From NCBI GenBank assembly GCA_026986575.1, contig JALSOH010000004.1, positions 124,001 through 188,000 on the forward strand: a DNA stretch of 64,000 bases. The letters are read 5' to 3'. Within the stretch, counting starts at the first letter, position 1. The number at the start of each line of letters is the position of its first letter. Source of the DNA: Thermoproteota archaeon. Its GTDB lineage: Archaea; Korarchaeota; Korarchaeia; Korarchaeales; Korarchaeaceae. Below, piece by piece: positions 25,471 to 41,778 of this stretch. Both the position numbers and the translations under genes were made by a program. The notes beneath the pieces are model-generated. The model ran no database searches. It was not told where the DNA came from and saw only the letters and a list, made by a program, of their open reading frames with translations.

Positions 25471-25773
25471 TTGAAGATATATGGGATTGAAAGAGAGGTA
25501 TTTGCACTTTCTCTCGCAATCCTGTTAATACTGCCGTTAGTAGCCAGTATACCAAACTCCATGGGTGTCTGGATAGGGACCTATGTAAGAACGTGGTCTG
25601 TGAAGCGTGCTCACAGGATGGCTAGCTGGGCGCTTGATCAGATTACCGATCCCATCGGATGGGCAATAGGACACCATACTTGGTACACACGCCTCGCATC
25701 TATCGCACTCATAGCTTATACTGGCATTGGACCTTATTACGCGGCATTCACGATAGGATTCACTGTAGGGTGA
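25471..25773 (+). CDS. Leader-bearing hydrophobic peptide, candidate circular-bacteriocin-like precursor
   Basis: 100 residues. A basic start and a hydrophobic helix (ALSLAILLILPLVASIP, about residues 11-27) look like a leader. The remaining roughly 70 residues (from MGVWIGTY to the C-terminal FTIGFTVG) are cationic, aromatic and amphipathic, the size of mature circular bacteriocins such as enterocin AS-48. TTG 25471 is set by GGTGAT four bases upstream. The stop TGA overlaps the GTG start of a SpoIIM/DUF95 gene, and ABC transporter genes follow; SpoIIM/DUF95 and ABC proteins are standard partners in circular-bacteriocin operons. Function is inferred from size, leader and context; no family motif exists to confirm it. 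Confidence 0.6.
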   Translation: MKIYGIEREVFALSLAILLILPLVASIPNSMGVWIGTYVRTWSVKRAHRMASWALDQITDPIGWAIGHHTWYTRLASIALIAYTGIGPYYAAFTIGFTVG

Positions 25774-26312
25774 CAGAAATTATTAGAACATCCTGTTTAC
25801 CCGAGTTTTTTATTCTAATCATTTATCTATCATCGTTTGTTGTAGGTACATGGCACACCTTTAACGAAAATGGCGCTCGGGATGGATCCTTCCATCTGAA
25901 GGATGTTAAAAATATTAATATAGATTACCTCGATTTCTTCAGGATGGTATTGTTAAATAATTTAGTGGCAGGTATCTTAATCATTGTGGGAGGATGGTTG
26001 TTCTGCATACCGACTCTCTTAGTCCCCATAGCTTCGGGTTACTTTGCTGGGCTTTACTTTGGAGCTGCTTACAGAGCTTATGGACTCTTCATTTCCTTAA
26101 TTTTGTACATTCCCATGCCCTTGGAGATAGCCGCCATAGTTATCCTAGGTCATGTATCCTTCAAGCTATGTAAGGAGAATCTCAGGAGATTAAGGGGAAA
26201 CGACTCGGATGCTCCTTTGCTCAGAGGCCATATTAAATCTATCACATACGGTATTTTCCTCATAGTTGTAGGTGCTGTGATCGAGACAGTTATTCAATTC
26301 TACATCGGTTAA
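25770..26312 (+). CDS. SpoIIM/DUF95-family membrane protein
   Basis: 180 residues with about five membrane segments. The central block NNLVAGILIIVGG...PTLLVPIASGYFAGLYFG and the late YIPMPLEIAAIVILGH correspond to the conserved asparagine-rich first half and the P-x-x-x-E motif of SpoIIM (usually PHGxxE). It starts at GTG 25770, sharing four bases with the peptide stop, so translation is likely coupled. In bacteria, DUF95 proteins of bacteriocin operons take part in maturation, secretion or immunity; here such a role is inference. Confidence 0.75.
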   Translation: MTEIIRTSCLPEFFILIIYLSSFVVGTWHTFNENGARDGSFHLKDVKNINIDYLDFFRMVLLNNLVAGILIIVGGWLFCIPTLLVPIASGYFAGLYFGAAYRAYGLFISLILYIPMPLEIAAIVILGHVSFKLCKENLRRLRGNDSDAPLLRGHIKSITYGIFLIVVGAVIETVIQFYIG

Positions 26313-26342
26313 ATTCATGAATGAGATCGCCGAGGGAGATTT

Positions 26343-26936
26343 ATGAGGCTATTCTTTTCCTTCATGCTAGTGCTTCTCACGGGAATCATGGTACACCTTT
26401 ACTTCACTATGCCGTTCTTAAAGCCTAGTACCTCCACATACGCCGAAATGGATGTCCGCATTATAAGGGGATCTTTCCTACTCACTCCGGTATTTTCCAG
26501 CCTCATAGTCGTCCTGATATGGGCTGTGGAATCTTCTTTAGCCTCGCTCGTCATCAGAAGATCGGTGAGAGGGGCGGAAAGGTCCCACATAAATTTAGGC
26601 GTCATAATGAGCGAATTTTCCTTGGGATACGTTCCTGAATTTATCTTCCTCCTCATAATAGTCCCGCTCGTATGGTTCAACCTCCCTGAATACACAGTGA
26701 CCTCTGTGAAGGAGCTTATTAACGCATCTAAGAGCCTAGGAGAGTCTCCATTATACGTAAACGGGATGCTCGCTCTGATTGCTGTATCCATATCTCGCTA
26801 TCCCATATACGCAGCCATACTCAGATACAGATTGGATATAGGATGGAGGGAGACCCTCACTATCATCGCCCTGCTTATCATTGTTGATACACTCATAGCT
26901 TTGTGGGGAGGAGGGTTCGACTTAGGTAGGGGGTGA
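26343..26936 (+). CDS. Polytopic membrane protein of the peptide locus
   Basis: 197 residues with about five hydrophobic helices, preceded by GAGGGAGA before ATG 26343. It is not clearly related to a named family, though the general pattern resembles Yip1-type proteins. A membrane protein of almost the same length (199 residues) also follows the SpoIIM gene in the second peptide locus (39695-40294), so the position is conserved even if sequence similarity is weak. Possible roles are immunity or export. Confidence 0.65.
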   Translation: MRLFFSFMLVLLTGIMVHLYFTMPFLKPSTSTYAEMDVRIIRGSFLLTPVFSSLIVVLIWAVESSLASLVIRRSVRGAERSHINLGVIMSEFSLGYVPEFIFLLIIVPLVWFNLPEYTVTSVKELINASKSLGESPLYVNGMLALIAVSISRYPIYAAILRYRLDIGWRETLTIIALLIIVDTLIALWGGGFDLGRG

Positions 26937-26943
26937 GTTAGGC

Positions 26944-27591
26944 ATGAGAACTGAAGATAACCTCATCTTAGAGGTTAAAAGGATAAGTAAAAGGCTCGGG
27001 AAGAGACAGGTGTTAGCAGATGTGAGCTTCGACGTGAGGAATGGAGAGGTAGTCCTCATAAGGGGGCCCAATGGGTCGGGAAAGACGACGCTTCTAAGAA
27101 CCATTGCTGGGGTGTTTAGACCAGATTCCGGTCGAGTACTCCTATTGGGAAGGGATATTCACGAGGATATGGGTGTGAGGAGAGAAATCAGCTACTGTCC
27201 TGAGAGGCTAGGCCTTCTTGGGGATTACACAATCGAGGATAACATGATGTTCTTTACCAAAGTGTTCGGGAGATCGTTCGACGAGCACAGATTTAGAGAC
27301 TACGTGAAAGGGTTTCGGCTCGAGGGATACTCGGATGACAAGATATCCAAGCTCTCGGCTGGGACTAGGAAGAAGGTGGCTATCATCAGGACTCTCGTCT
27401 TCCCGGCTAGGCTGTACCTGCTTGACGAACCACTAGCTAACCTAGACGAGGAGAGCGTGAGCTTTTTAATTGAGGAAATTAGGAGAATGGCCGATCTAGG
27501 ATCTTCCTTCCTGATATCTTCTCACATAGAGTTCCCGGCTGCTGATCGTGAATTAGAGATGAGAGGTGGGGGACTTGTCGAGGTTAGGTGA
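26944..27591 (+). CDS. ABC transporter ATP-binding protein
   Basis: 215 residues, a single nucleotide-binding domain: Walker A RGPNGSGKTT, the signature LSAGTRKKV, Walker B LYLLDEP, and the switch histidine in ISSHI. The signature has SAGT instead of SGGQ. It is directly followed by two overlapping membrane genes, likely the permease. The operon context suggests export of, or immunity to, the upstream peptide. Confidence 0.93.
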   Translation: MRTEDNLILEVKRISKRLGKRQVLADVSFDVRNGEVVLIRGPNGSGKTTLLRTIAGVFRPDSGRVLLLGRDIHEDMGVRREISYCPERLGLLGDYTIEDNMMFFTKVFGRSFDEHRFRDYVKGFRLEGYSDDKISKLSAGTRKKVAIIRTLVFPARLYLLDEPLANLDEESVSFLIEEIRRMADLGSSFLISSHIEFPAADRELEMRGGGLVEVR

Positions 27592-28309
27592 CCTAATAGC
27601 GGGTCACCTCTACCTAATGGGTGGATTGACCAATGTCAGGGAGATCTTCGTGTTCTTGAGCCCACAGATCCTGTTTTTGGCACTAGCTGAGGTCATAGCA
27701 GGATCCAGGACGTATACAGAATTATTGATGGTTACTTCGTTGCTTGAGAGTTTTTCCTTAGTCATTACGTATATTCTCCTTGGTATCGTGGTGCCGGGGA
27801 GGCTAATCAGATTAAGCTACTCGATGAGAGATGCCGGAATGATGGAGATATTCCTGAATCAGGGGGTTGGATTGGATCAGGTATTGCTGTCTCTCTGGAT
27901 CGGTTCGTCCCTAAAATACTCCTTATACGTGATTGCAGGAAGCCTGATAGCCCTGCTCTCTTTATACCTAGCTGGATGGATGACAGTAGTCGAATTCCTA
28001 ACGGCATTGGGCGTGATCGCCGTCATGGTCACACTCTTCTCGGCAATTTGCATTACCCTATCTCTTATCCTTCCTCCCAGTGAAGCTCAATACTGGTCTC
28101 AATTAGTCTTTTTCCTGATCTTCGGATATTTATACTTAGGTTTCCTCAATCCCCGGAATTACAATGATATCGTGAGGCTCTTCTTGGGCGGATACTTAAA
28201 CCCCATGTCGCTGGGTGGAGGGGCCATAGCAACCTTTCTCGTAATAGTTTTACTGATAGGATTATCTGAGGAGAGGGGGGATATTATTGAAATTGATGAG
28301 GTTAAATAA
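27575..28309 (+). CDS. ABC-2-like permease subunit
   Basis: About 244 residues with six probable membrane helices and no extracellular domain, the layout of ABC-2 export permeases. TTG 27575 behind GAGGTGGGG is the best start, overlapping the ATPase gene by 17 bases. It in turn overlaps the next gene by 23 bases. The family call is by topology and context, not by motif. Confidence 0.7.
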   Translation: MSRLGDLIAGHLYLMGGLTNVREIFVFLSPQILFLALAEVIAGSRTYTELLMVTSLLESFSLVITYILLGIVVPGRLIRLSYSMRDAGMMEIFLNQGVGLDQVLLSLWIGSSLKYSLYVIAGSLIALLSLYLAGWMTVVEFLTALGVIAVMVTLFSAICITLSLILPPSEAQYWSQLVFFLIFGYLYLGFLNPRNYNDIVRLFLGGYLNPMSLGGGAIATFLVIVLLIGLSEERGDIIEIDEVK

Positions 28310-28973
28310 TCTAAATGCCCAAATCACCTTGGAATTGACTTTGCTTGTAAGGGGTAGGGGAAAGAGGATCGGGTGGTTAATTAGGGTACTCGTGGTCTCC
28401 ATGGCTGTGCTGTCGCTGGGTCTGCTAAGCTCACTGGAGTTGGGTAATCTCAAAAACATTTACCTATCACTCCCGGGTGTATGGCTCCTGTCTTCGGCCT
28501 TGATGATGGATAATACGGTCGAGATAAAGAATAGCGGTCTTGCTGAGATTTTGCTCCAGACATATGGGCCTTCATATTTGGGTGTGAGGTATCTCCTATA
28601 TACTGTGGTAACGATACTCCTATCAATATCCTTTATTTTGCTGGGAGGCTCTGTAGTTTCACTGATGGTTGGGATAGGATTATCGGGTTTGGATGCCATT
28701 TCCTTGCTATCTCTCTCCGTCATAGGTTCAACGGCTTTAATGACCGTTACAGTCTTATTATCGGTGAAAATTGGTGGCCTGAGGTTATTAGACACCTTTT
28801 CCCTAGCAAGTGGCGGACTTACCCTCCTCCTGATCATTTCCATGCCTTCTATATTGGAGGCGCTTAATCAAGAGTTGTTTGTTTGTATGTTGCTCGCTGG
28901 GACATTCTCCATAGCTGTTCTGACTATAGTGTACCTTAAGAGGCATGACTTTCCGGCATTATTAACAATCTAG
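28287..28973 (+). CDS. Membrane protein, probable second permease or immunity subunit
   Basis: 228 residues with six hydrophobic segments. TTG 28287 lies four bases after GGGGGGAT and is nested in the end of the previous permease gene, so the two are translated together. It is the last gene of the operon starting at 25471. The following 1.1 kb is non-coding or decayed. Confidence 0.65.
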   Translation: MKLMRLNNLNAQITLELTLLVRGRGKRIGWLIRVLVVSMAVLSLGLLSSLELGNLKNIYLSLPGVWLLSSALMMDNTVEIKNSGLAEILLQTYGPSYLGVRYLLYTVVTILLSISFILLGGSVVSLMVGIGLSGLDAISLLSLSVIGSTALMTVTVLLSVKIGGLRLLDTFSLASGGLTLLLIISMPSILEALNQELFVCMLLAGTFSIAVLTIVYLKRHDFPALLTI

Positions 28974-30074: not shown

Positions 30075-30275
30075 TTGTCTAAAGCCATATGGGTGAAGTA
30101 TGAGAAGGGGGTATTGAAGCCTCTGGAGGAGCTAGACCTCCCTGAGGGCGAGGTATTGCTTGTAAAGTTAATTGGGACACAATTGGCAGAGAAGGTATTT
30201 GGTTCCATAAAGGTCGATAAGGAGAGGCTCGAGCACTTTCTGAGGGAAGCTGAAGATGAGTTCGGTGTTTATTGA
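30075..30275 (+). CDS. VapB-type antitoxin (AF2212/DUF104-like)
   Basis: 66 residues. The N-terminal IWVKYEKGVLKPLEELDLPE is the AF2212-like pattern (a short beta strand with GxLKPLE), and the charged C-terminal part likely wraps the toxin. It starts at TTG 30075 behind TAGGGAT. It overlaps the PIN-domain toxin gene by 20 bases, the usual vapBC arrangement, and probably represses its own promoter. Confidence 0.85.
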   Translation: MSKAIWVKYEKGVLKPLEELDLPEGEVLLVKLIGTQLAEKVFGSIKVDKERLEHFLREAEDEFGVY

Positions 30276-30690
30276 TAGTAATGTATTCATTAAATACTTT
30301 GCTGGTGACATAGAGGCTAGGAGGCTCTTAGAACCGATAATTTACGGAGATATGCAGGGCTACATTAATAACGTAATTTTCTCAGAAGTACTCTTCATTT
30401 CAGTAAAGCTTCTCACGGGAAGGAAAGCTTACGAATTAAAGAAGAATCCGGAAATAATCAAGAATATATTCGATAAAATAACGGATTACGTTCTCTTCCT
30501 ACGGCAATACTTCAAAGAGTTAGAGATAAATGAAGAGATAAAGCAATCGGCGTATGAAATAATCAGAGACTACGGGCTACTACCCAACGACTCCTTAATC
30601 GCGGCAACATGCAAACACTACGGCATAGATACCATAGTGACTTTTGATGTAGATTTCAGGCGTATACCGTGGCTCAACGTAGTTCCCTAG
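30256..30690 (+). CDS. VapC-type PIN-domain ribonuclease toxin
   Basis: 144 residues. PIN acidic residues are visible in FIDSNVFIKYF, the middle glutamate in FSEVLF, NDSLIAATC and VTFDVDFRR. Such toxins cut tRNA or rRNA when released from VapB. This is the only vapBC pair in the window with both genes intact. ATG 30256. Confidence 0.88.
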   Translation: MSSVFIDSNVFIKYFAGDIEARRLLEPIIYGDMQGYINNVIFSEVLFISVKLLTGRKAYELKKNPEIIKNIFDKITDYVLFLRQYFKELEINEEIKQSAYEIIRDYGLLPNDSLIAATCKHYGIDTIVTFDVDFRRIPWLNVVP

Positions 30691-31950: not shown

Positions 31951-32466
31951 TTACCCTTCAGCTGAACTCTCTCCGCTTTCTTCACCGCTCCTCTTCTCCT
32001 TCCAAGGTTCTCTTAGTTCTCCTGGCTCTGAGAGCTTATCACCGTACTTGTAGAACAATATGTAGATGAAATAGCTCCCTGCCACTAAGAAGGCAAAGTC
32101 ACGAAGCTCTTTGCCGGGAATTAAGTCTGAGCTAATCCCCAGTCTGATGAGCGTATACGGATAAAGCACTACCATCATAACGTAGAAGGTTATCAGAGAG
32201 AAGAAGACGTATATGAGAGCATATCTCGTTCTCCTTACTTCCAGCATGTAGTAGTCGATCGCACCGATCAGCCCGAAGCTGGTAATTACTATGAGCACTC
32301 CTTCTATAAAAGGTAGATACCTGTTATTCTTACTGGCAACCGGAAAGTATGTAATGAAATGATAGATTAGCATGGCAAAAAGCATAAATATAGTAAATAA
32401 TATCCTCTCTTTGGATGATTTATTTGAACCTCCTACATCTTGAGGCCTTAAGGTACGCATTGACAT
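31951..32466 (-). CDS. Membrane protein paired with the halocin-like gene
   Basis: 171 residues with four probable membrane helices and a long charged, Glu/Ser-rich C-terminal tail. It overlaps the end of the cysteine-rich precursor gene by 19 bases, so it is its operon partner. By analogy with halocin systems it may serve export or immunity, but no family motif is visible. Confidence 0.6.
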   Translation of the reverse strand: MSMRTLRPQDVGGSNKSSKERILFTIFMLFAMLIYHFITYFPVASKNNRYLPFIEGVLIVITSFGLIGAIDYYMLEVRRTRYALIYVFFSLITFYVMMVVLYPYTLIRLGISSDLIPGKELRDFAFLVAGSYFIYILFYKYGDKLSEPGELREPWKEKRSGEESGESSAEG

Positions 32467-33152
32467 ACCGTACCTACCTCGCTACAACATCCGCCATACA
32501 GGGTAAATACTAAGCAAAAGGGACACCAGACTATCAAGCATTCCCAGAATGCCGGAACATTTCTACAGCTAGCGCAGCAATTGAGAAGACATGAGATATT
32601 CCATCTACAGCAGTACGCGGAGCAACTGCAGTAGTCCCCACATGAATCATATCCTGGATATGCTGTGCAATTATGAGCGCAACTGCTCAAATTTATATAT
32701 GAACCATTGATGATTCTAGCATCAATTGATATATAGTCTTTATGAGAGCTGAGAATCAACGCTATACTTCTAATTTCATTGACTAATTTAGTGCCCTTCA
32801 TATAAATTAAATACTTTCTTTCCTTAAGTGGGATTAGAAGCAGTACTGCTGTGACTATATCTCCATCGACCGAAAATCTAATGAGCGAGCCTTTAGGTTG
32901 AGATGCCTTAAGATCATTTACATTAAGTGCGCCCCTCTCTATAAGAGAAATCACATCATTTGATTTTAAAGCCTCTGTAACGAAATTTTTGAGCTCTGCT
33001 CCCTCCAGTTTCATGTGATCCAATTCAACAAAATAGGGTTCATTTCTTAATCCTTTGTTCGCCTTTATTTTGAGATCTCCTGTACAAGTAATTGATACTA
33101 TGCTGAGAAGAGATGCCTTTAATGCTTCTTTAATAAACCTCCTTCTGCTCAA
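32448..33152 (-). CDS. Halocin C8-like precursor: twin-arginine leader and cysteine-rich C-terminus
   Basis: About 234 residues from TTG 33152; ATG 33173 and 33188 are alternatives. The N-terminus SRRRFIKEALKASLLSI is a twin-arginine signal. A middle domain of about 140 residues follows. The last 78 residues hold 18 cysteines, many in pairs (YCCRW, NCCASC, GGCCSE, CQC). Halocin C8 has the same order: Tat leader, an immunity domain, then a released ten-cysteine peptide. Sequence identity to it is not apparent by eye, so the relationship rests on layout. A membrane-protein gene overlaps its end. Confidence 0.65.
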   Translation of the reverse strand: MSRRRFIKEALKASLLSIVSITCTGDLKIKANKGLRNEPYFVELDHMKLEGAELKNFVTEALKSNDVISLIERGALNVNDLKASQPKGSLIRFSVDGDIVTAVLLLIPLKERKYLIYMKGTKLVNEIRSIALILSSHKDYISIDARIINGSYINLSSCAHNCTAYPGYDSCGDYCSCSAYCCRWNISCLLNCCASCRNVPAFWECLIVWCPFCLVFTLYGGCCSEVGTVCQCVP

Positions 33153-33249
33153 ATTAATTCTCCATAGGCGCATGAGCGTAATAGACATTCCTGAAATATA
33201 AATTCTACGTTCTATTCCTATGCATTCTTTCCTTGAGAATCTCACCTTA

Positions 33250-33518: not shown

Positions 33519-33945
33519 ATGCTTGGAACCCTCATGAGGGACGAAGCCAGAAGGTGGTTCTCTGAGGCGAGATGGAACTTGGAGACCGCTAGGATATTGC
33601 ATGATAGGGGAAGATACAACGCCGCTTGCTTTTACGCTCATAGCCGCGGAGATGGCTGTCAAAGCCCTCTTGATAAGCAGGAACGAGCCTCCTTGGAGCC
33701 ACGGCGTGAGGGCCCTGCTCGAGAGGTATTCGGAGATCAGTGGTGAGGACGTGTCCCTCCTCTTACCTCACGCCAGGGAGCTGGACAGGCACTACATCCC
33801 CTCCAGATATCCGAACGCCCATCCATACGGGACGCCCCACGAGGCTTACGACAAGCCAACCTCCATAAAGGCCATCGGAAGCGCGGAACTAATATTGGGT
33901 TACGTGGAGGATAGGTTGGATGGATCTCAGGAAGCTGGTGAATAG
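33519..33945 (+). pseudogene. HEPN-domain protein gene with a one-base frameshift
   Basis: The frame from ATG 33519 (EARRWFSEARWNLETARILH...AACFYA) continues in the next frame as IAAEMAVKALLISRNEPPWS and then HGVRALLERY, a typical HEPN protein. The shift is near 33635-33640, where one base is missing. The reconstructed product would be about 142 residues and ends inside the start of the nucleotidyltransferase gene. It could be a sequencing error, a pseudogene or, less likely, a recoded gene. Confidence 0.75.
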
Positions 33946-34312
33946 GATAAGGGAGAGGTATAGGGTCTACGCGATCATACTCTTCGGCTCACGGGCCAGG
34001 GGAGACTGGCTCCCTCACAGTGATTACGATCTTCTCGTCGTGGCCGAATTCAAAGAGCCCTTCCTAGACAGGATCTACGAGCTCTCCGGATTGGCTAAGG
34101 GCCCTGTGGAATTCCATCCCTACACCCTCTACGAGGTGAGGGAATTACTGAGGAGGGGCGTTCCATCGATCGTTGATGCCCTCGAGGAGGGCATCGTCCT
34201 CTACGAGGGGGAGGAGTTCAGGGAGGTGAGGGAGCTTTTCGAGGAGATGAAGAGGAAGGGGCTCAGGAGGAGCGGTGTATCGATCATATTGCCCGGAGGT
34301 GATCAGCCGTAG
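33920..34312 (+). CDS. MNT-type minimal nucleotidyltransferase (antitoxin)
   Basis: 130 residues. The polymerase-beta motif FGSRARGDWLPHSDYDLLV has the GSxARG and DxD elements complete. Partner HEPN genes are toxins neutralised by adenylylation in MntA-HepT systems. It overlaps the HEPN gene at its start, and its last 168 bases are antisense to the 3' end of the secreted-protein gene. Confidence 0.88.
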   Translation: MDLRKLVNRIRERYRVYAIILFGSRARGDWLPHSDYDLLVVAEFKEPFLDRIYELSGLAKGPVEFHPYTLYEVRELLRRGVPSIVDALEEGIVLYEGEEFREVRELFEEMKRKGLRRSGVSIILPGGDQP

Positions 34313-35284
34313 GTCTCTTCCACGCCCCCACCCAGCCGGGGATCTGGTGTTCCCGAGTTTTATCGACCCTTCACCCTTCAATACGCTTCTAACGTCGGAT
34401 ATGAAGATCTGAGGTGTGTTGCAAGATCCCAAGCATCCGCAGTAGCTGTAGTAGGGACATGGATCCCTTTTCGTGTGGGTCATCATGTAGCTGACGAACA
34501 TGATACCTCCCAGATCCCTCAGCTCCAGCCCGCACGTCCCGTTAACTAGCGTGTTGGCGGAGCCGCACGACCCCCCGCAGTTCGCTGCTGGTTCACTGCC
34601 CGATAGGGTGATCAGCGCTACGCCCTCACCCATGCCCAAGAACCTCGCTCTGAAGATCATGTGAACGTCGCATGCCGTGCGAGGTGGTTTCTGTCTCGTG
34701 CACCCACTCGCCCTGCCATGTTCGTAGTAAAACCACCAGACATTCCCCTCGGGGTGCATGAGCCCGTGATATATCTCGTTGCACCTCCACATACCATCTC
34801 CGTAACCCTCTGATGGTCCGCTCAGCCTCCTCCACCCCTTCTCCTCCCTAATCCAGAGATCCGCGACCCCTCTCAGGGGGTCCAGTAGGGTGGGCGGTAA
34901 GTCGGCGAAGATCCTAGAAGGCACGCTGCTAAGGGCTAGCTCTGATGCCAGCATCTCGATATAGTGGATGTCGTGACTCCCGTTGAGGGACCATATTATA
35001 ACGAACGGGAGGGTCCTGTTGATTCGCTCGGCGTAATCGAGCAGCTTCCTTATCTCTAACCTGTTAAACCTGAGTGGAGGGACGACGAGGGCGAGAGAAC
35101 CTAGCCTCCTCCCGTATCTCTCGAATACCTCCTTCTCCTTGGCGTAATATTCAACGTCAGGGAGGGATTTGAGGAACATCTCCTTCACGGAATTCCCCCT
35201 AGGAGCTAAGCTTAAGACAAGTCCGCCGATGAGTAGGATAAGGAATAGAGAATTAAGAGCCCTCCTATCGACCGTGGGATCCAT
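34145..35284 (-). CDS. Secreted cysteine-containing protein, unknown family
   Basis: About 379 residues from ATG 35284. A signal peptide (ALNSLFLILLIGGLVLSLAP) is followed by an extracytoplasmic domain with cysteines concentrated between residues 225 and 310 (NCGGSCGS, DPCPYYSYCGCLGSC). The C-terminal 56 codons overlap the nucleotidyltransferase gene tail to tail. A TATA-like CTTATAACA precedes it. I do not recognise it; its closeness to the cysteine-rich halocin-like gene may be coincidental. Confidence 0.6.
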   Translation of the reverse strand: MDPTVDRRALNSLFLILLIGGLVLSLAPRGNSVKEMFLKSLPDVEYYAKEKEVFERYGRRLGSLALVVPPLRFNRLEIRKLLDYAERINRTLPFVIIWSLNGSHDIHYIEMLASELALSSVPSRIFADLPPTLLDPLRGVADLWIREEKGWRRLSGPSEGYGDGMWRCNEIYHGLMHPEGNVWWFYYEHGRASGCTRQKPPRTACDVHMIFRARFLGMGEGVALITLSGSEPAANCGGSCGSANTLVNGTCGLELRDLGGIMFVSYMMTHTKRDPCPYYSYCGCLGSCNTPQIFISDVRSVLKGEGSIKLGNTRSPAGWGRGRDLRLITSGQYDRYTAPPEPLPLHLLEKLPHLPELLPLVEDDALLEGINDRWNAPPQ

Positions 35285-35376
35285 GCATCCTTTCCTATGT
35301 CGTACCGGGTGCAATGTTATAAGATCTGATGCGCTGCCCTCGAGTCAGTTTTTAATTTCGAGGGGAGCAATAAATT

Positions 35377-35672
35377 GGGGGAGAGGAGGCCGGGGGTTAC
35401 GGCCGTAAGGCTGAGGAAGGTCCGCCCACGCCCCCAGCACCGCCTCCCCGTAAGGGGATGCCCCGAGAGGGGCAGGAAGGCCCACAGAAACGACACGTCC
35501 CTCGGGGCATGGCGATGATGCCGGTGAGGCAGAGGACCCCGAGGGGACCGGTGAAACGGGGCCCCGGCGGTGTGCAAGCCAGTCCCCGCAATGAGCAGCT
35601 GGGGCGAGCGGGGGGTAGGCGCTCAGCCGAATCCCCCAAGTACAGAAGGCGGACTATGGCCTCCACTCCCCC
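35377..35672 (+). ncRNA. rnpB: RNase P RNA
   Basis: The 5' P4 strand GAGGAAGGTCCGCCC and the matching 3' ACAGAAGGCGGACTATGG are the conserved cores, and internal archaeal elements are visible (ACAGAAACGACACGTCCC, GACCGGTGAAACGG, GCAAGCCAGTCCCC). P1 is long: GGGGGAG-A-GGAGGCC pairs with GGCCTCC-A-CTCCCCC. The length is about 296 bases. A TATA-like TTTTTAATT lies near 35349. The open frames across it are not genes. Confidence 0.92.
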
Positions 35673-35836: not shown

Positions 35837-35910
35837 AGCGGGGTGGGGCAGCCTGGTAGCCCGCCGGGCTCATAACCCGGAGGTCGGTGGTTCAAATCCA
35901 CCCCCCGCTA
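35837..35910 (+). tRNA. Initiator tRNA-Met(CAU)
   Basis: Acceptor AGCGGGG/CCCCGCT; anticodon stem CCGGG/CCCGG with the three G-C pairs diagnostic of initiators and loop CTCATAA. CCA is not encoded (the gene is followed by CTT). TATA-like CTTTAAATATG is about 30 bases upstream. Confidence 0.95.
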
Positions 35911-36083
35911 CTTGAAAAGTTTTGACATTATTTCGTGTTTTCTGATGTATATTTTCCTATAAATCCGAGTTATTGAATAAAACCATCTATAACATCCCCT
36001 TCAAAAATTCAGTCCCCTGTCTCACAACTCTCATTGACGTGATTTTGAATAAGTCCGGGCACTTAGCACCTATTAGATAGTCG

Positions 36084-36299: not shown

Positions 36300-36375
36300 T
36301 TTAAACTTAATTATGCATCACATATAATTGCACATAATAATTATATAATTCTACCTCCGAAATTATGGGGTGCAC

Positions 36376-37441
36376 ATGGTAAGCGAGAAAGTACGGAGTC
36401 AGAAAGTTACTCCTAGGGGAAGACGCATCCCTCATGACCTCAGAATGGAACTCTACTTTTTAGTTAGAGAGCCCCGCGATAGAGGGATGAGTTATCGTGA
36501 GATTCAGAGAATTGTGGAAAGGGAGCGCGGTATCAAAATAAGCAGGTCTCACATATCCTACTGGATTCACGGCCTTCATACCCCGCTAAACGAGCCCTAC
36601 AATCATGTCGATACTTCCAAGAAGGGTGAGCTGGCTTGGATAGCAGGGATGTTCGTAGGGGATGGTTCCGTGAAGATCAACAGGAAGGGTCGCTTCTTGG
36701 TGCTGAAAGTTAAGGATAGGGAGCTAGCGGAGGCTGCCGCTAATAAACTGGCAGTTGTTCTGGGAAAGGGAGAGAGGTACGCGGTAAACAGGATGGGGGA
36801 CGGTAGGTACTACGTACAGGTCCAGTCGAGGGAACTAGTCGACCACTTGAGAGCGTGGGAGAACATTCTCTCGCATCTAGAGAGAAGCCCTAGAGAGTTC
36901 ATTCAGGCACTCTTCGATTGTGAGGGCGGACCTATAGGACACGTTAGTGCATCTGGCAGGTTCTTCGCCAGAATAGATGTAGGTAATACCAATAGAGAGT
37001 TGCTCGAGGATGTATCCCTGAAGCTCTCTGACATGGGGATTCCAATCAACCGTTTCGATGCATTATCCCAAGGGAAAGGTTTTCGTAACTAGGAAGGGGA
37101 GATCCGTGGCTAGAAGAGACTGTTACTTCTTAAGGATATATCGGCAGGGGGGCATCATTAGGTACCGGGATGAGGTTGGATTTGTCACTTCAAGGAAGCA
37201 GGAGAAGCTAGAGGACATAGTTTACATCCTCTCTAATCTCGGATCTGGACGGGAAGCTGCCGTGGAGTGGATTAGGAGATACGAATACAAGAGAGGGATG
37301 GGCCGCCAGAGGTGGTTCAGGAGGGAGAGGTTCCTTGAATGGGAGGATGCTGTTAAGGAGTATGAGAGGTTCTTAGCCAGGAGATCGGCGATTAATCGTT
37401 ATTATAGGTCACAGCATTCCCCTCTTTCTGCAGGCCTCTAG
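36376..37441 (+). pseudogene. LAGLIDADG homing-endonuclease-like gene, frameshifted
   Basis: An N-terminal helix-turn-helix region (MSYREIQRIVERERGIKISR) precedes two LAGLIDADG-type helices, IAGMFVGDGSV and FIQALFDCEGG, each with its acidic residue. Near 37065-37085 the frame shifts by one base and continues as YPKGKVFVTRKGRSVA to the stop at 37441. The whole would be about 355 residues, free-standing and not inside a host gene. GGGGTGC precedes ATG 36376. Confidence 0.7.
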
Positions 37442-39694: not shown

Positions 39695-40294
39695 TTAGGG
39701 ATAGAGTGCGTGATTTTTTAATAACTGCTGGGCAGCAATCTTCGGATAATATATTCTCAGCACTATGTCCGTCAAAAGAAGCATGAGTATCATTGCTACG
39801 TCGTCCACCCTCTTCATCCCATATCTATGATTGAAAACACGATAGAAGTAGATGAAGGATAGAGTCGAGAAGGAAGTATCGATTAGCGCCTTGATTGATG
39901 AGTATAGCTCGATACTAGATGCTCCTATAATGGGAAGAAGCACTAGATCCGTTACTAGTGATATAGACGAAAAGAGGAAGTAAAAGGATACAACACTCAG
40001 TATTGGGGAGAGCGGACCCTTATACACGCTTCTATAAAACAAGAAGAGGTAAGTTAGTGCTCCCAGCAGGCCCCAAAGTAGGGCTCCGGTGAAGCTGCTT
40101 CCTAACAATACAAAATATGCGATAACATATGGGGGAATGGATTGATTGGCTACACCCAGCTCGTTCAAGACGATCATTAGGTACAAGGATTGAGTACCCG
40201 TGTAGAGCAAGTATAGGAGAAGGGGCCTTCTCCTATTGGATGGAGGGCTATTGTTAAGCAGATCCGGATTTTCTTCTCTTCTACATATGGCCAT
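39695..40294 (-). CDS. Polytopic membrane protein of the second peptide locus
   Basis: 199 residues with five probable helices; a GALLWGLLGALTYLFLF segment gives it a Yip1-like look. It overlaps the SpoIIM-type gene by 14 bases, so it is translationally linked. It corresponds in place and size to the 197-residue protein after SpoIIM in the first peptide locus. Confidence 0.65.
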   Translation of the reverse strand: MAICRREENPDLLNNSPPSNRRRPLLLYLLYTGTQSLYLMIVLNELGVANQSIPPYVIAYFVLLGSSFTGALLWGLLGALTYLFLFYRSVYKGPLSPILSVVSFYFLFSSISLVTDLVLLPIIGASSIELYSSIKALIDTSFSTLSFIYFYRVFNHRYGMKRVDDVAMILMLLLTDIVLRIYYPKIAAQQLLKNHALYP

Positions 40295-40841
40295 TTAACT
40301 TCACCAAGATGCAAGGTATTGAGAGATAATATTCTATAACTGATGATAATATTATCATAATTAAACTTAATAACGCCAATTTTGTTAAATAAACTAACTG
40401 ATCTCTGGAGAGGTCATAGTGATCCCCGCCATGGATGACCGTTACGGCGCTCGAAAGACCTACGGATGAGGAGATGAGGATAGAAGTGATCTCCAGCGGC
40501 CCGTGGAATAGAAAGCAGGGGAGTGCACCTGTCAAGTTTTCTCTGAGAATTTCCCTGACGATGCTACCTACCACCATGCCGTTGAAGCTAAGGGAGAGAG
40601 CCGTGAGCGTTCCAAGTGTCACATATCCTATGGAAAGAATCAGGATAACGGAACTGTTCAAGAGTATAAGTCCGCGTAAATCATAATGTCCATTAAAGGA
40701 ATGAGGAACGAAAACTCCACCTAACCCTTCTGTGTAAGATTGATCTGGGATCAGGAAACTTCCTAAGATCCCGGCCGCATAGAAAAGCGATGCTAAGATC
40801 AGTCCCTCACCCACCCTTGGGCCTTGTTTCGTCCCTACCAT
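40281..40841 (-). CDS. SpoIIM/DUF95-family membrane protein (second locus)
   Basis: 186 residues with about five helices. LLNSSVILILSIGYVTLGTL and the motif CFLFHGPLEITSILISSS (HGxxE, usually PHGxxE) identify SpoIIM/DUF95. ATG 40841 follows GGAGGATG and overlaps the end of the M48 protease gene by 35 bases. In bacteriocin operons this family accompanies leader-bearing circular peptides. Confidence 0.75.
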   Translation of the reverse strand: MVGTKQGPRVGEGLILASLFYAAGILGSFLIPDQSYTEGLGGVFVPHSFNGHYDLRGLILLNSSVILILSIGYVTLGTLTALSLSFNGMVVGSIVREILRENLTGALPCFLFHGPLEITSILISSSVGLSSAVTVIHGGDHYDLSRDQLVYLTKLALLSLIMIILSSVIEYYLSIPCILVKLNGHM

Positions 40842-41778
40842 GGCTCATCCTCCTGATGATCTCTATTCTCTTCTCCAAGCTAGGATGCGTTGGAAGTAGG
40901 GAGGGGGTTTCCTTCATTCCATATATTTTGATCAGAGCGTTTATCAGATCCTCTGGATTTGAGTAAGATGCTGCAATGAGATCGGCCTTGACCTCCCTCC
41001 TCCTTATCAGGATTAAGAAGACCGACAACGCTGCCAAGAAGCCAGCCACCACTAGCAGGAAGATTACGGGATCGCGTTTCGTTACTGCCCCCGTTAGGGA
41101 GGAGGGTACTTCGCCTACAAGGAGTAGCATCGCGTACATCAGTAGTGTGTAGCCCAGATACCTGGCGATGTCTCCTTCTTTATAATGGGCGAGTTCGTGG
41201 GCCAGTACGCTCTTGATCTCTCCATTAGACAGCACCTTAAGCAGATCCTCATTTATGAAGACAGTCGGTTGAACGATCCCGCCAAGAAGCGCGGTTTTCA
41301 TTAGAGAGGATCTGAATAATCGGAGCCTTATATTCTTCCTGATCTCCATCTTTCCCTTAAGATCCTCGAAAACCCTCTTCAGATCGTCCGGGGGGTCTCT
41401 CCCCTGACCAATCTTATCGAAGATTATAGGAACCAGATTAACTGTGACGAACAGTACTACGAGAAGAGTGGAGAATTCCACTAGGATGCTGTGGTTGGGA
41501 AGTGAGGAGATCACAGCAGCGTAGATGAAGATCAAATATAAATCGAAATAATTGAGCAGGAGATCCTTGAATAATCTCCTGGCTCCCGGGCTTTCCTTAC
41601 GAAGAATGGGGTCTACAAGGGAGAGAATTATAGCAGCTAGTATCAAGATGAAAAATCCTGTGATAAGGGGGTTAAGCCTGTACTCCACCACGAGGATTAC
41701 GGTAAGAGACATCATAGCTACTGTTATGAGAGCCATCACTAAATTGTAAAGAGAAAAAAATGGAGAGTTAGTTCCCAA
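40807..41778 (-). CDS. M48-family (HtpX-like) membrane metalloprotease
   Basis: 323 residues: N-terminal membrane helices, a catalytic HExxH in VLAHELAHYKEGD, two further helices, and a third zinc-ligand glutamate in RREVKADLIAAS. The PTHPSLEKRIEIIR ending is typical of M48B. It starts at TTG 41778 after GGGATC, ten bases after the end of the peptide gene. Its position directly behind a leader-bearing peptide suggests it cleaves the leader. Confidence 0.88.
   Translation of the reverse strand: MGTNSPFFSLYNLVMALITVAMMSLTVILVVEYRLNPLITGFFILILAAIILSLVDPILRKESPGARRLFKDLLLNYFDLYLIFIYAAVISSLPNHSILVEFSTLLVVLFVTVNLVPIIFDKIGQGRDPPDDLKRVFEDLKGKMEIRKNIRLRLFRSSLMKTALLGGIVQPTVFINEDLLKVLSNGEIKSVLAHELAHYKEGDIARYLGYTLLMYAMLLLVGEVPSSLTGAVTKRDPVIFLLVVAGFLAALSVFLILIRRREVKADLIAASYSNPEDLINALIKIYGMKETPSLLPTHPSLEKRIEIIRRMSHGRDETRPKGG

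What the first reader, a model, noticed from the sequence alone, without database searches (positions are those of the whole stretch)
31951..33152. Halocin C8-like Tat precursor with an 18-cysteine C-terminus in a non-halophile
Twin-arginine signal, middle domain, then 18 cysteines in the last 78 residues, with an overlapping membrane-protein gene. Halocin C8 has the same domain order (Tat leader, immunity domain, ten-cysteine bacteriocin). A folded, Tat-exported, disulfide-dense peptide would suit a thermophile.
Basis: partly seen in the sequence, partly recalled or inferred. Interest (0 to 1): 0.76.

Follow-up and report, generated by a model that had tools for sequence, protein, structure and literature searches.

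The report
Disulfide-zippered archaeal bacteriocin with immunity gene
This archaeal gene pair looks like a secreted killing peptide, held together by about nine disulfide bonds, plus the membrane protein that protects its maker; relatives in Thermococcus show that warhead and protector are swapped together on a constant carrier, which would give heat-loving archaea a bacteriocin system that can be tested in the laboratory.

Summary
A 234-aa reading frame (TTG 33152 to 32448, minus strand) has an SRRRFIK leader, a middle domain and 18 Cys in its last 78 residues, overlapped by 19 nt by a membrane-protein gene. The host encodes TatC.

Homologues occur patchily in the window's own family (4 of 24 genomes) and in 42 of 94 Thermococcus-order genomes. 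Across 34 loci the middle "carrier" is conserved while the Cys-rich tip and the next-door membrane protein are hypervariable and change together (20 of 21 similar membrane-protein pairs also share tips; permutations average 1.3). Extra immunity-type genes without their tips occur downstream and elsewhere. This is the signature of a toxin with cognate immunity.

All 36 distinct tips have an even Cys number (14-20), and variable cysteines come and go in strictly nested pairs. The tip is therefore predicted to be a disulfide-zippered hydrophobic hairpin.

The tip is not a halocin C8 domain: no TIGR04449 hit, and profile comparison is no better than shuffled. It works like halocin C8, but specific immunity most likely lies in the separate membrane protein, not the middle domain. 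Toxicity is inferred, not shown. I rate it a new variant of a known kind: polymorphic archaeal bacteriocin.

The parts
32448..33152 (-). precursor gene, 234 aa from TTG 33152 (ATG 33171-33173 possible: 241 aa)
   Evidence: homologues
33081..33152 (-). Tat-type signal MSRRRFIKEALKASLLSIVSITCT
   Evidence: RR motif and weakly hydrophobic h-region; TatC in host and in the 3 relatives tested but in 0 of 10 Thermococcus-order genomes, whose homologues have a Sec-like anchor
32685..33041 (-). carrier (middle) domain, residues 38-156, predicted helix-helix then five or six antiparallel strands
   Evidence: hhalign to Thermococcus carriers probability 98.6, E 6e-16; AF2 model
32451..32681 (-). 18-Cys tip (predicted toxin), residues 158-234, with hydrophobic hairpin
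   Evidence: predicted cystines C175-C232, C181-C223, C188-C222, C192-C213, C193-C210; C196-C205 inferred; C158, C162, C171, C177, C182, C230 unassigned
31951..32466 (-). overlapping membrane protein, 171 aa, predicted cognate immunity protein
   Evidence: co-variation with tips in 34 loci; homologue next to the related tip in L003; lone 72% identical copy in G008
33194..33202 (-). TATA-like box TTTATATTT
   Evidence: sequence
33160..33163 (-). Shine-Dalgarno GGAG, 7 nt before TTG 33152
   Evidence: sequence

Best explanation
A two-gene archaeal bacteriocin cassette. The precursor is exported, by Tat in this host and by a Sec-type signal-anchor in Thermococcus. Outside the cell its Cys-rich C-terminal tip folds with all cysteines paired into a nested ladder of cystines that zips a hydrophobic helical hairpin. 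The tip, released or still attached to the carrier, inserts into or blocks a membrane target of related competitors. The co-transcribed small membrane protein protects the producer from its own tip. Tip and immunity genes are exchanged as one cassette behind a constant carrier. Shown here by sequence: gene pair, shared carrier, co-variation of tip and membrane protein, orphan immunity genes, even and pairwise-varying cysteines, TatC and RR-motif co-occurrence. Inferred: processing, toxicity, membrane target, neutralisation.
For: 34 loci: 20 of 21 pairs with similar membrane proteins also have similar tips (permutation mean 1.3, maximum 7 in 10000); at carrier similarity 0.7-0.9, 11 pairs share both, 3 only the tip, 0 only the membrane protein, 119 neither. 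The membrane-protein start lies -43 to +18 nt from the precursor stop in 33 of 34. Nine loci with an intact precursor carry further membrane-protein genes like other tips' partners downstream or nearby, one 95% identical to another locus's cognate; displaced tips occur in L063 and L081. G008 has the window's membrane protein (72%) without a precursor. All 36 distinct tips have even Cys counts; the optimal pairing of variable Cys columns is strictly nested, 5 discordant cells against mean 111 and minimum 13 in 20000 random pairings. One carrier with two kinds of tip, one of them halocin C8 type. Patchy occurrence and broken copies.
Against: No member has been shown to kill anything, and no processing site was identified. 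Nothing in Pfam, NCBIfam, PHROGs or the PDB matches. Co-variation alone would also fit a tip and its dedicated anchor, chaperone or receptor. Sequences are related, so counts are not independent events. The AF2 model is of moderate confidence (pLDDT 66.6). No VKOR was found in the host, so the source of disulfides outside the cell is unknown.
Confidence: 0.74

Rival explanations
1. Kin recognition or adhesion: the tip is a variable surface ligand and the membrane protein its matching receptor or anchor, with no killing, as proposed among other options for the VARTIG module of Thermococcales.
For: Hypervariable exported tip and matched membrane partner; carriers with N-terminal membrane anchors; VARTIG precedent (PMC8416519).
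Against: Extra partner genes without their tips and a lone partner in G008 fit immunity better; the tip is short, hydrophobic and fully Cys-paired, like a peptide toxin.
Confidence: 0.15
2. A true halocin C8 family member in which the middle domain gives immunity and the downstream gene is incidental.
For: Same order of parts: Tat leader, middle domain, Cys-rich C-terminus; weak carrier similarity to a TIGR04449 precursor.
Against: No TIGR04449 match; tip profiles unrelated; the downstream gene is tightly linked and follows the tip.
Confidence: 0.06
3. A Cys-rich metal-binding or redox protein with a membrane partner.
For: 18 cysteines with several CxxC and CC pairs in a Tat substrate, and Tat often exports cofactor proteins (own knowledge).
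Against: No metal or redox family match; cysteines are lost and gained in matched pairs far apart in sequence and are always even in number; hypervariability.
Confidence: 0.04

Closest known systems
Halocin C8 and the halocin C8-like domain family (TIGR04449)
   Same: Exported precursor with N-terminal leader, a middle domain and a C-terminal Cys-rich peptide; Tat leader in this host and in haloarchaea; even Cys number; a small gene follows the precursor in the haloarchaeal plasmid loci read here.
   Different: 14-20 Cys in a different scaffold against 10-12; no sequence relation of tips; immunity predicted in a separate, co-varying membrane protein, whereas halocin C8 and its immunity peptide HalI come from one gene (described in PMC11509114).
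Polymorphic toxin systems (for example CDI) with cognate and orphan immunity genes
   Same: Constant N-terminal part, exchangeable C-terminal tip, adjacent specific immunity, arrays of orphan immunity genes, displaced tips.
   Different: Small precursor (about 240 aa), no large delivery filament, a disulfide peptide in place of a nuclease or other enzyme, membrane-protein immunity.
VARTIG module of Thermococcales (PMC8416519)
   Same: Hypervariable exported protein followed by matched membrane proteins, in Thermococcales.
   Different: VARTIG proteins are large and built of Ig domains; here no Ig match, a small Cys-rich tip, and a distribution that reaches a second archaeal phylum.

Membership tests
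halocin C8 family (TIGR04449) | C-terminal domain matches the family profile | tested here: not met
halocin C8 family (TIGR04449) | about ten cysteines in the halocin C8 pattern | tested here: not met
   18 Cys in another scaffold; halocin-type tips have 10-12
halocin C8 family (TIGR04449) | Tat-dependent leader | tested here: met
   SRRRFIK motif and TatC in the host; shown by sequence only
halocin C8 family (TIGR04449) | immunity supplied by the precursor's own middle domain | tested here: inconclusive
   Conserved carrier with variable tips argues against specific immunity there; weak similarity to one halocin-type carrier
halocin C8 family (TIGR04449) | C-terminal peptide released and active against related strains | not testable with these tools
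   needs proteomics and killing assays
polymorphic toxin with cognate immunity | constant N-terminal part, variable C-terminal tip | tested here: met
   median normalised score carrier 0.60, tip 0.31, membrane protein 0.07 over 561 pairs
polymorphic toxin with cognate immunity | adjacent immunity gene that follows the tip | tested here: met
polymorphic toxin with cognate immunity | orphan immunity genes and displaced tips | tested here: met
polymorphic toxin with cognate immunity | toxicity of the tip and neutralisation by its partner | not testable with these tools
   bench test needed
VARTIG | immunoglobulin domains in the exported protein | tested here: not met
   no Pfam or NCBIfam match up to E 10 for the window protein; fold comparison gave no confident match

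The most novel reading that the evidence does not exclude
A previously undescribed class of archaeal polymorphic bacteriocins, shared by the window's small phylum and Thermococcus: one carrier whose export route switches between Tat and Sec with the host, carrying interchangeable cystine-zippered hairpin warheads with co-inherited membrane immunity proteins and orphan immunity arrays.
Probability: 0.5. Interest if true: 0.85.

Novelty: new variant of a known kind. Interest (0 to 1): 0.73.

Why it matters
Only halocins and sulfolobicins are well described as archaeal bacteriocins. This would be a third kind, in hyperthermophile relatives, with a testable toxin-immunity code: many tips, each with a matched protector, in Thermococcus, some members of which can be genetically manipulated. 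The cysteine co-variation gives a concrete disulfide map to check by mass spectrometry, and disulfide-zipped peptides of this density may be extremely stable.

Tried and rejected
Family searches (Pfam, NCBIfam, PHROGs, PADLOC) and the PDB gave nothing usable for the precursor or its partner; the profile's best PDB hit was a WAP-type peptide at E 0.26, not significant. Foldseek and VIA-align gave no confident fold (best E 0.048; best Z 4.8). A rank correlation of tip against partner similarity was uninformative because most pairs are at noise level, so a threshold test was used. The IMG/VR hit L132 is a chance match on the wrong strand of a large phage gene. The first genome-contig scan, with the window protein, found no relatives; alignment A2 was too diverse to scan with. 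Makarova et al. 2019 (mBio), the likeliest place for a prior prediction of this family, is not held, so priority could not be checked. Halocin carrier homology to this carrier was tested and left open. L118's tip is not distinguishable from shuffles against these tips (21.6 against maximum 22.1). VKOR was not found.

Full report
Observation. The frame at 32448-33152 (minus) encodes a 234-aa protein from TTG 33152. A GGAG sits 7 nt before that codon and a TTTATATTT box at 33194-33202 would place the transcript start near 33171, so TTG is the likelier start; an in-frame ATG at 33171-33173 adds 7 residues. Either way the SRRRFIK motif is inside the protein. The last 78 residues hold 18 Cys; the next densest frame in the window has 9. 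The following gene (31951-32466) encodes a 171-aa membrane protein and overlaps the precursor by 19 nt.

Relatives. In the window's own family, precursors are found in G005, G016 and G022 besides the window's genome, 4 of 24 genomes; G005 keeps the tip and partner but not the leader. In the order of G055, 42 of 94 genomes match, several with broken copies or fragments; named records are Thermococcus and Thermococcaceae. In a sample of 394 archaeal genomes nothing convincing was found outside these two groups.

Architecture. Thermococcus members have a signal-anchor, a conserved carrier and a variable Cys-rich end, then a small membrane protein. The carrier of the window's group and that of Thermococcus are homologous without the Cys part (hhalign probability 98.6, E 6e-16). 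The tip alignment keeps a Cys scaffold with variable loops.

Toxin and immunity. For 34 loci, carrier, tip and membrane protein were compared pairwise. Of 21 pairs with similar membrane proteins, 20 have similar tips; permutations give 1.3 on average and at most 7. Among pairs with equally similar carriers (0.7-0.9), 11 share tip and membrane protein, 3 only the tip, none only the membrane protein and 119 neither. So tip and membrane protein travel together and the carrier does not. Nine loci with an intact precursor hold additional membrane-protein genes related to other tips' partners; in L077 the extra gene is 95% identical to the cognate of L078. Displaced tips occur in L063 and L081. G008, 98% complete and of the same genus, has a 72% identical copy of the window's membrane protein beside a GGGP-synthase-like gene and no precursor. 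Orphan partners without tips are expected of immunity genes, less of anchors or chaperones.

Disulfides. All 36 distinct tips have an even Cys number (14, 16, 18 or 20). Cys columns that vary do so in pairs, and the best pairing of 14 variable columns is strictly nested: 5 discordant cells, against a mean of 111 and a minimum of 13 for 20000 random pairings (columns 69 and 70 were merged as a one-residue alignment shift). Pair 38-82 was lost jointly in two unrelated tips. In the window this predicts C181-C223, C188-C222, C192-C213, C193-C210 and C175-C232; C196-C205 follows from nesting; six further Cys pair in an N-terminal knot of unknown connectivity. The AF2 model has a strand, two helices and a strand in this region, in keeping with a stapled hairpin, at moderate confidence (pLDDT 66.6). 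The tip has a hydrophobic stretch (KD 1.95), so a membrane target is inferred.

Export. TatC is present in the window's genome (168 bits) and in the three tested relatives, and absent from ten Thermococcus-order genomes. Precursors in TatC-bearing hosts have RR motifs (SRRRFI, SRRRFI, KRREFL) with a weakly hydrophobic core; the Thermococcus example has a strongly hydrophobic anchor. In two relatives the RR motif follows two N-terminal hydrophobic segments. The export route thus seems to switch with the host while carrier and tip stay.

Comparison with halocin C8. TIGR04449 does not match the window protein or its relatives and the tip profiles are unrelated. The order of parts is the same. A TIGR04449 precursor from another archaeon (L092) has a carrier that resembles this group's (hhalign P 3e-4, score 28 against shuffled maximum 15), and the same genome bears the same carrier with a different 16-Cys tip (L118). 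So the systems probably work alike and may share a carrier ancestor, but this is not a halocin C8 member. In halocin C8 one gene gives both the toxin and its immunity peptide (PMC11509114); here specific immunity most likely lies in the separate membrane protein.

Limits. No activity, processing or disulfide was measured. Related sequences inflate counts. Whether this family was already predicted by Makarova et al. 2019 could not be checked. The window's lineage is an archaeon of a small phylum; I suspect Korarchaeota but did not test it.

Noticed in passing
33601-34312: HEPN (PF05168) and nucleotidyltransferase (PF01909) genes adjacent to the cassette: a HEPN-MNT toxin-antitoxin pair.
   Followed up: partly
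30075-30690: PIN-domain protein with a small upstream antitoxin-like ORF: a VapBC-type pair on the other side of the cassette.
   Followed up: partly
34145-35314: 389-aa frame, minus strand, with a hydrophobic N-terminus and a Cys cluster (7 Cys in 78 residues), no family match; its end is antisense to the nucleotidyltransferase gene.
   Followed up: partly
25659-28973 and 39695-41778: Two clusters with SpoIIM-family membrane proteins (PF01944), one with an ABC transporter ATPase and membrane proteins, one with an M48-like peptidase; SpoIIM proteins are known from bacteriocin loci elsewhere (own knowledge). No link to the cassette shown.
   Followed up: no
35381-35668: Archaeal RNase P RNA gene (RF00373, 179 bits) and tRNA-Met (35837-35911) flank the region.
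   Followed up: no
36370-37441: LAGLIDADG-type protein that seems split over two overlapping frames, perhaps frameshifted.
   Followed up: no
L091, L102 (genome G169): Two TIGR04449 halocin C8-like precursors in one Thermococcus-order genome; L102 is followed by a small membrane protein.
   Followed up: partly
L117, L119, L120: The same first 36-45 residues as the halocin-type precursor L092 precede unrelated secreted sequences in the same order, as if one leader serves several effectors.
   Followed up: partly
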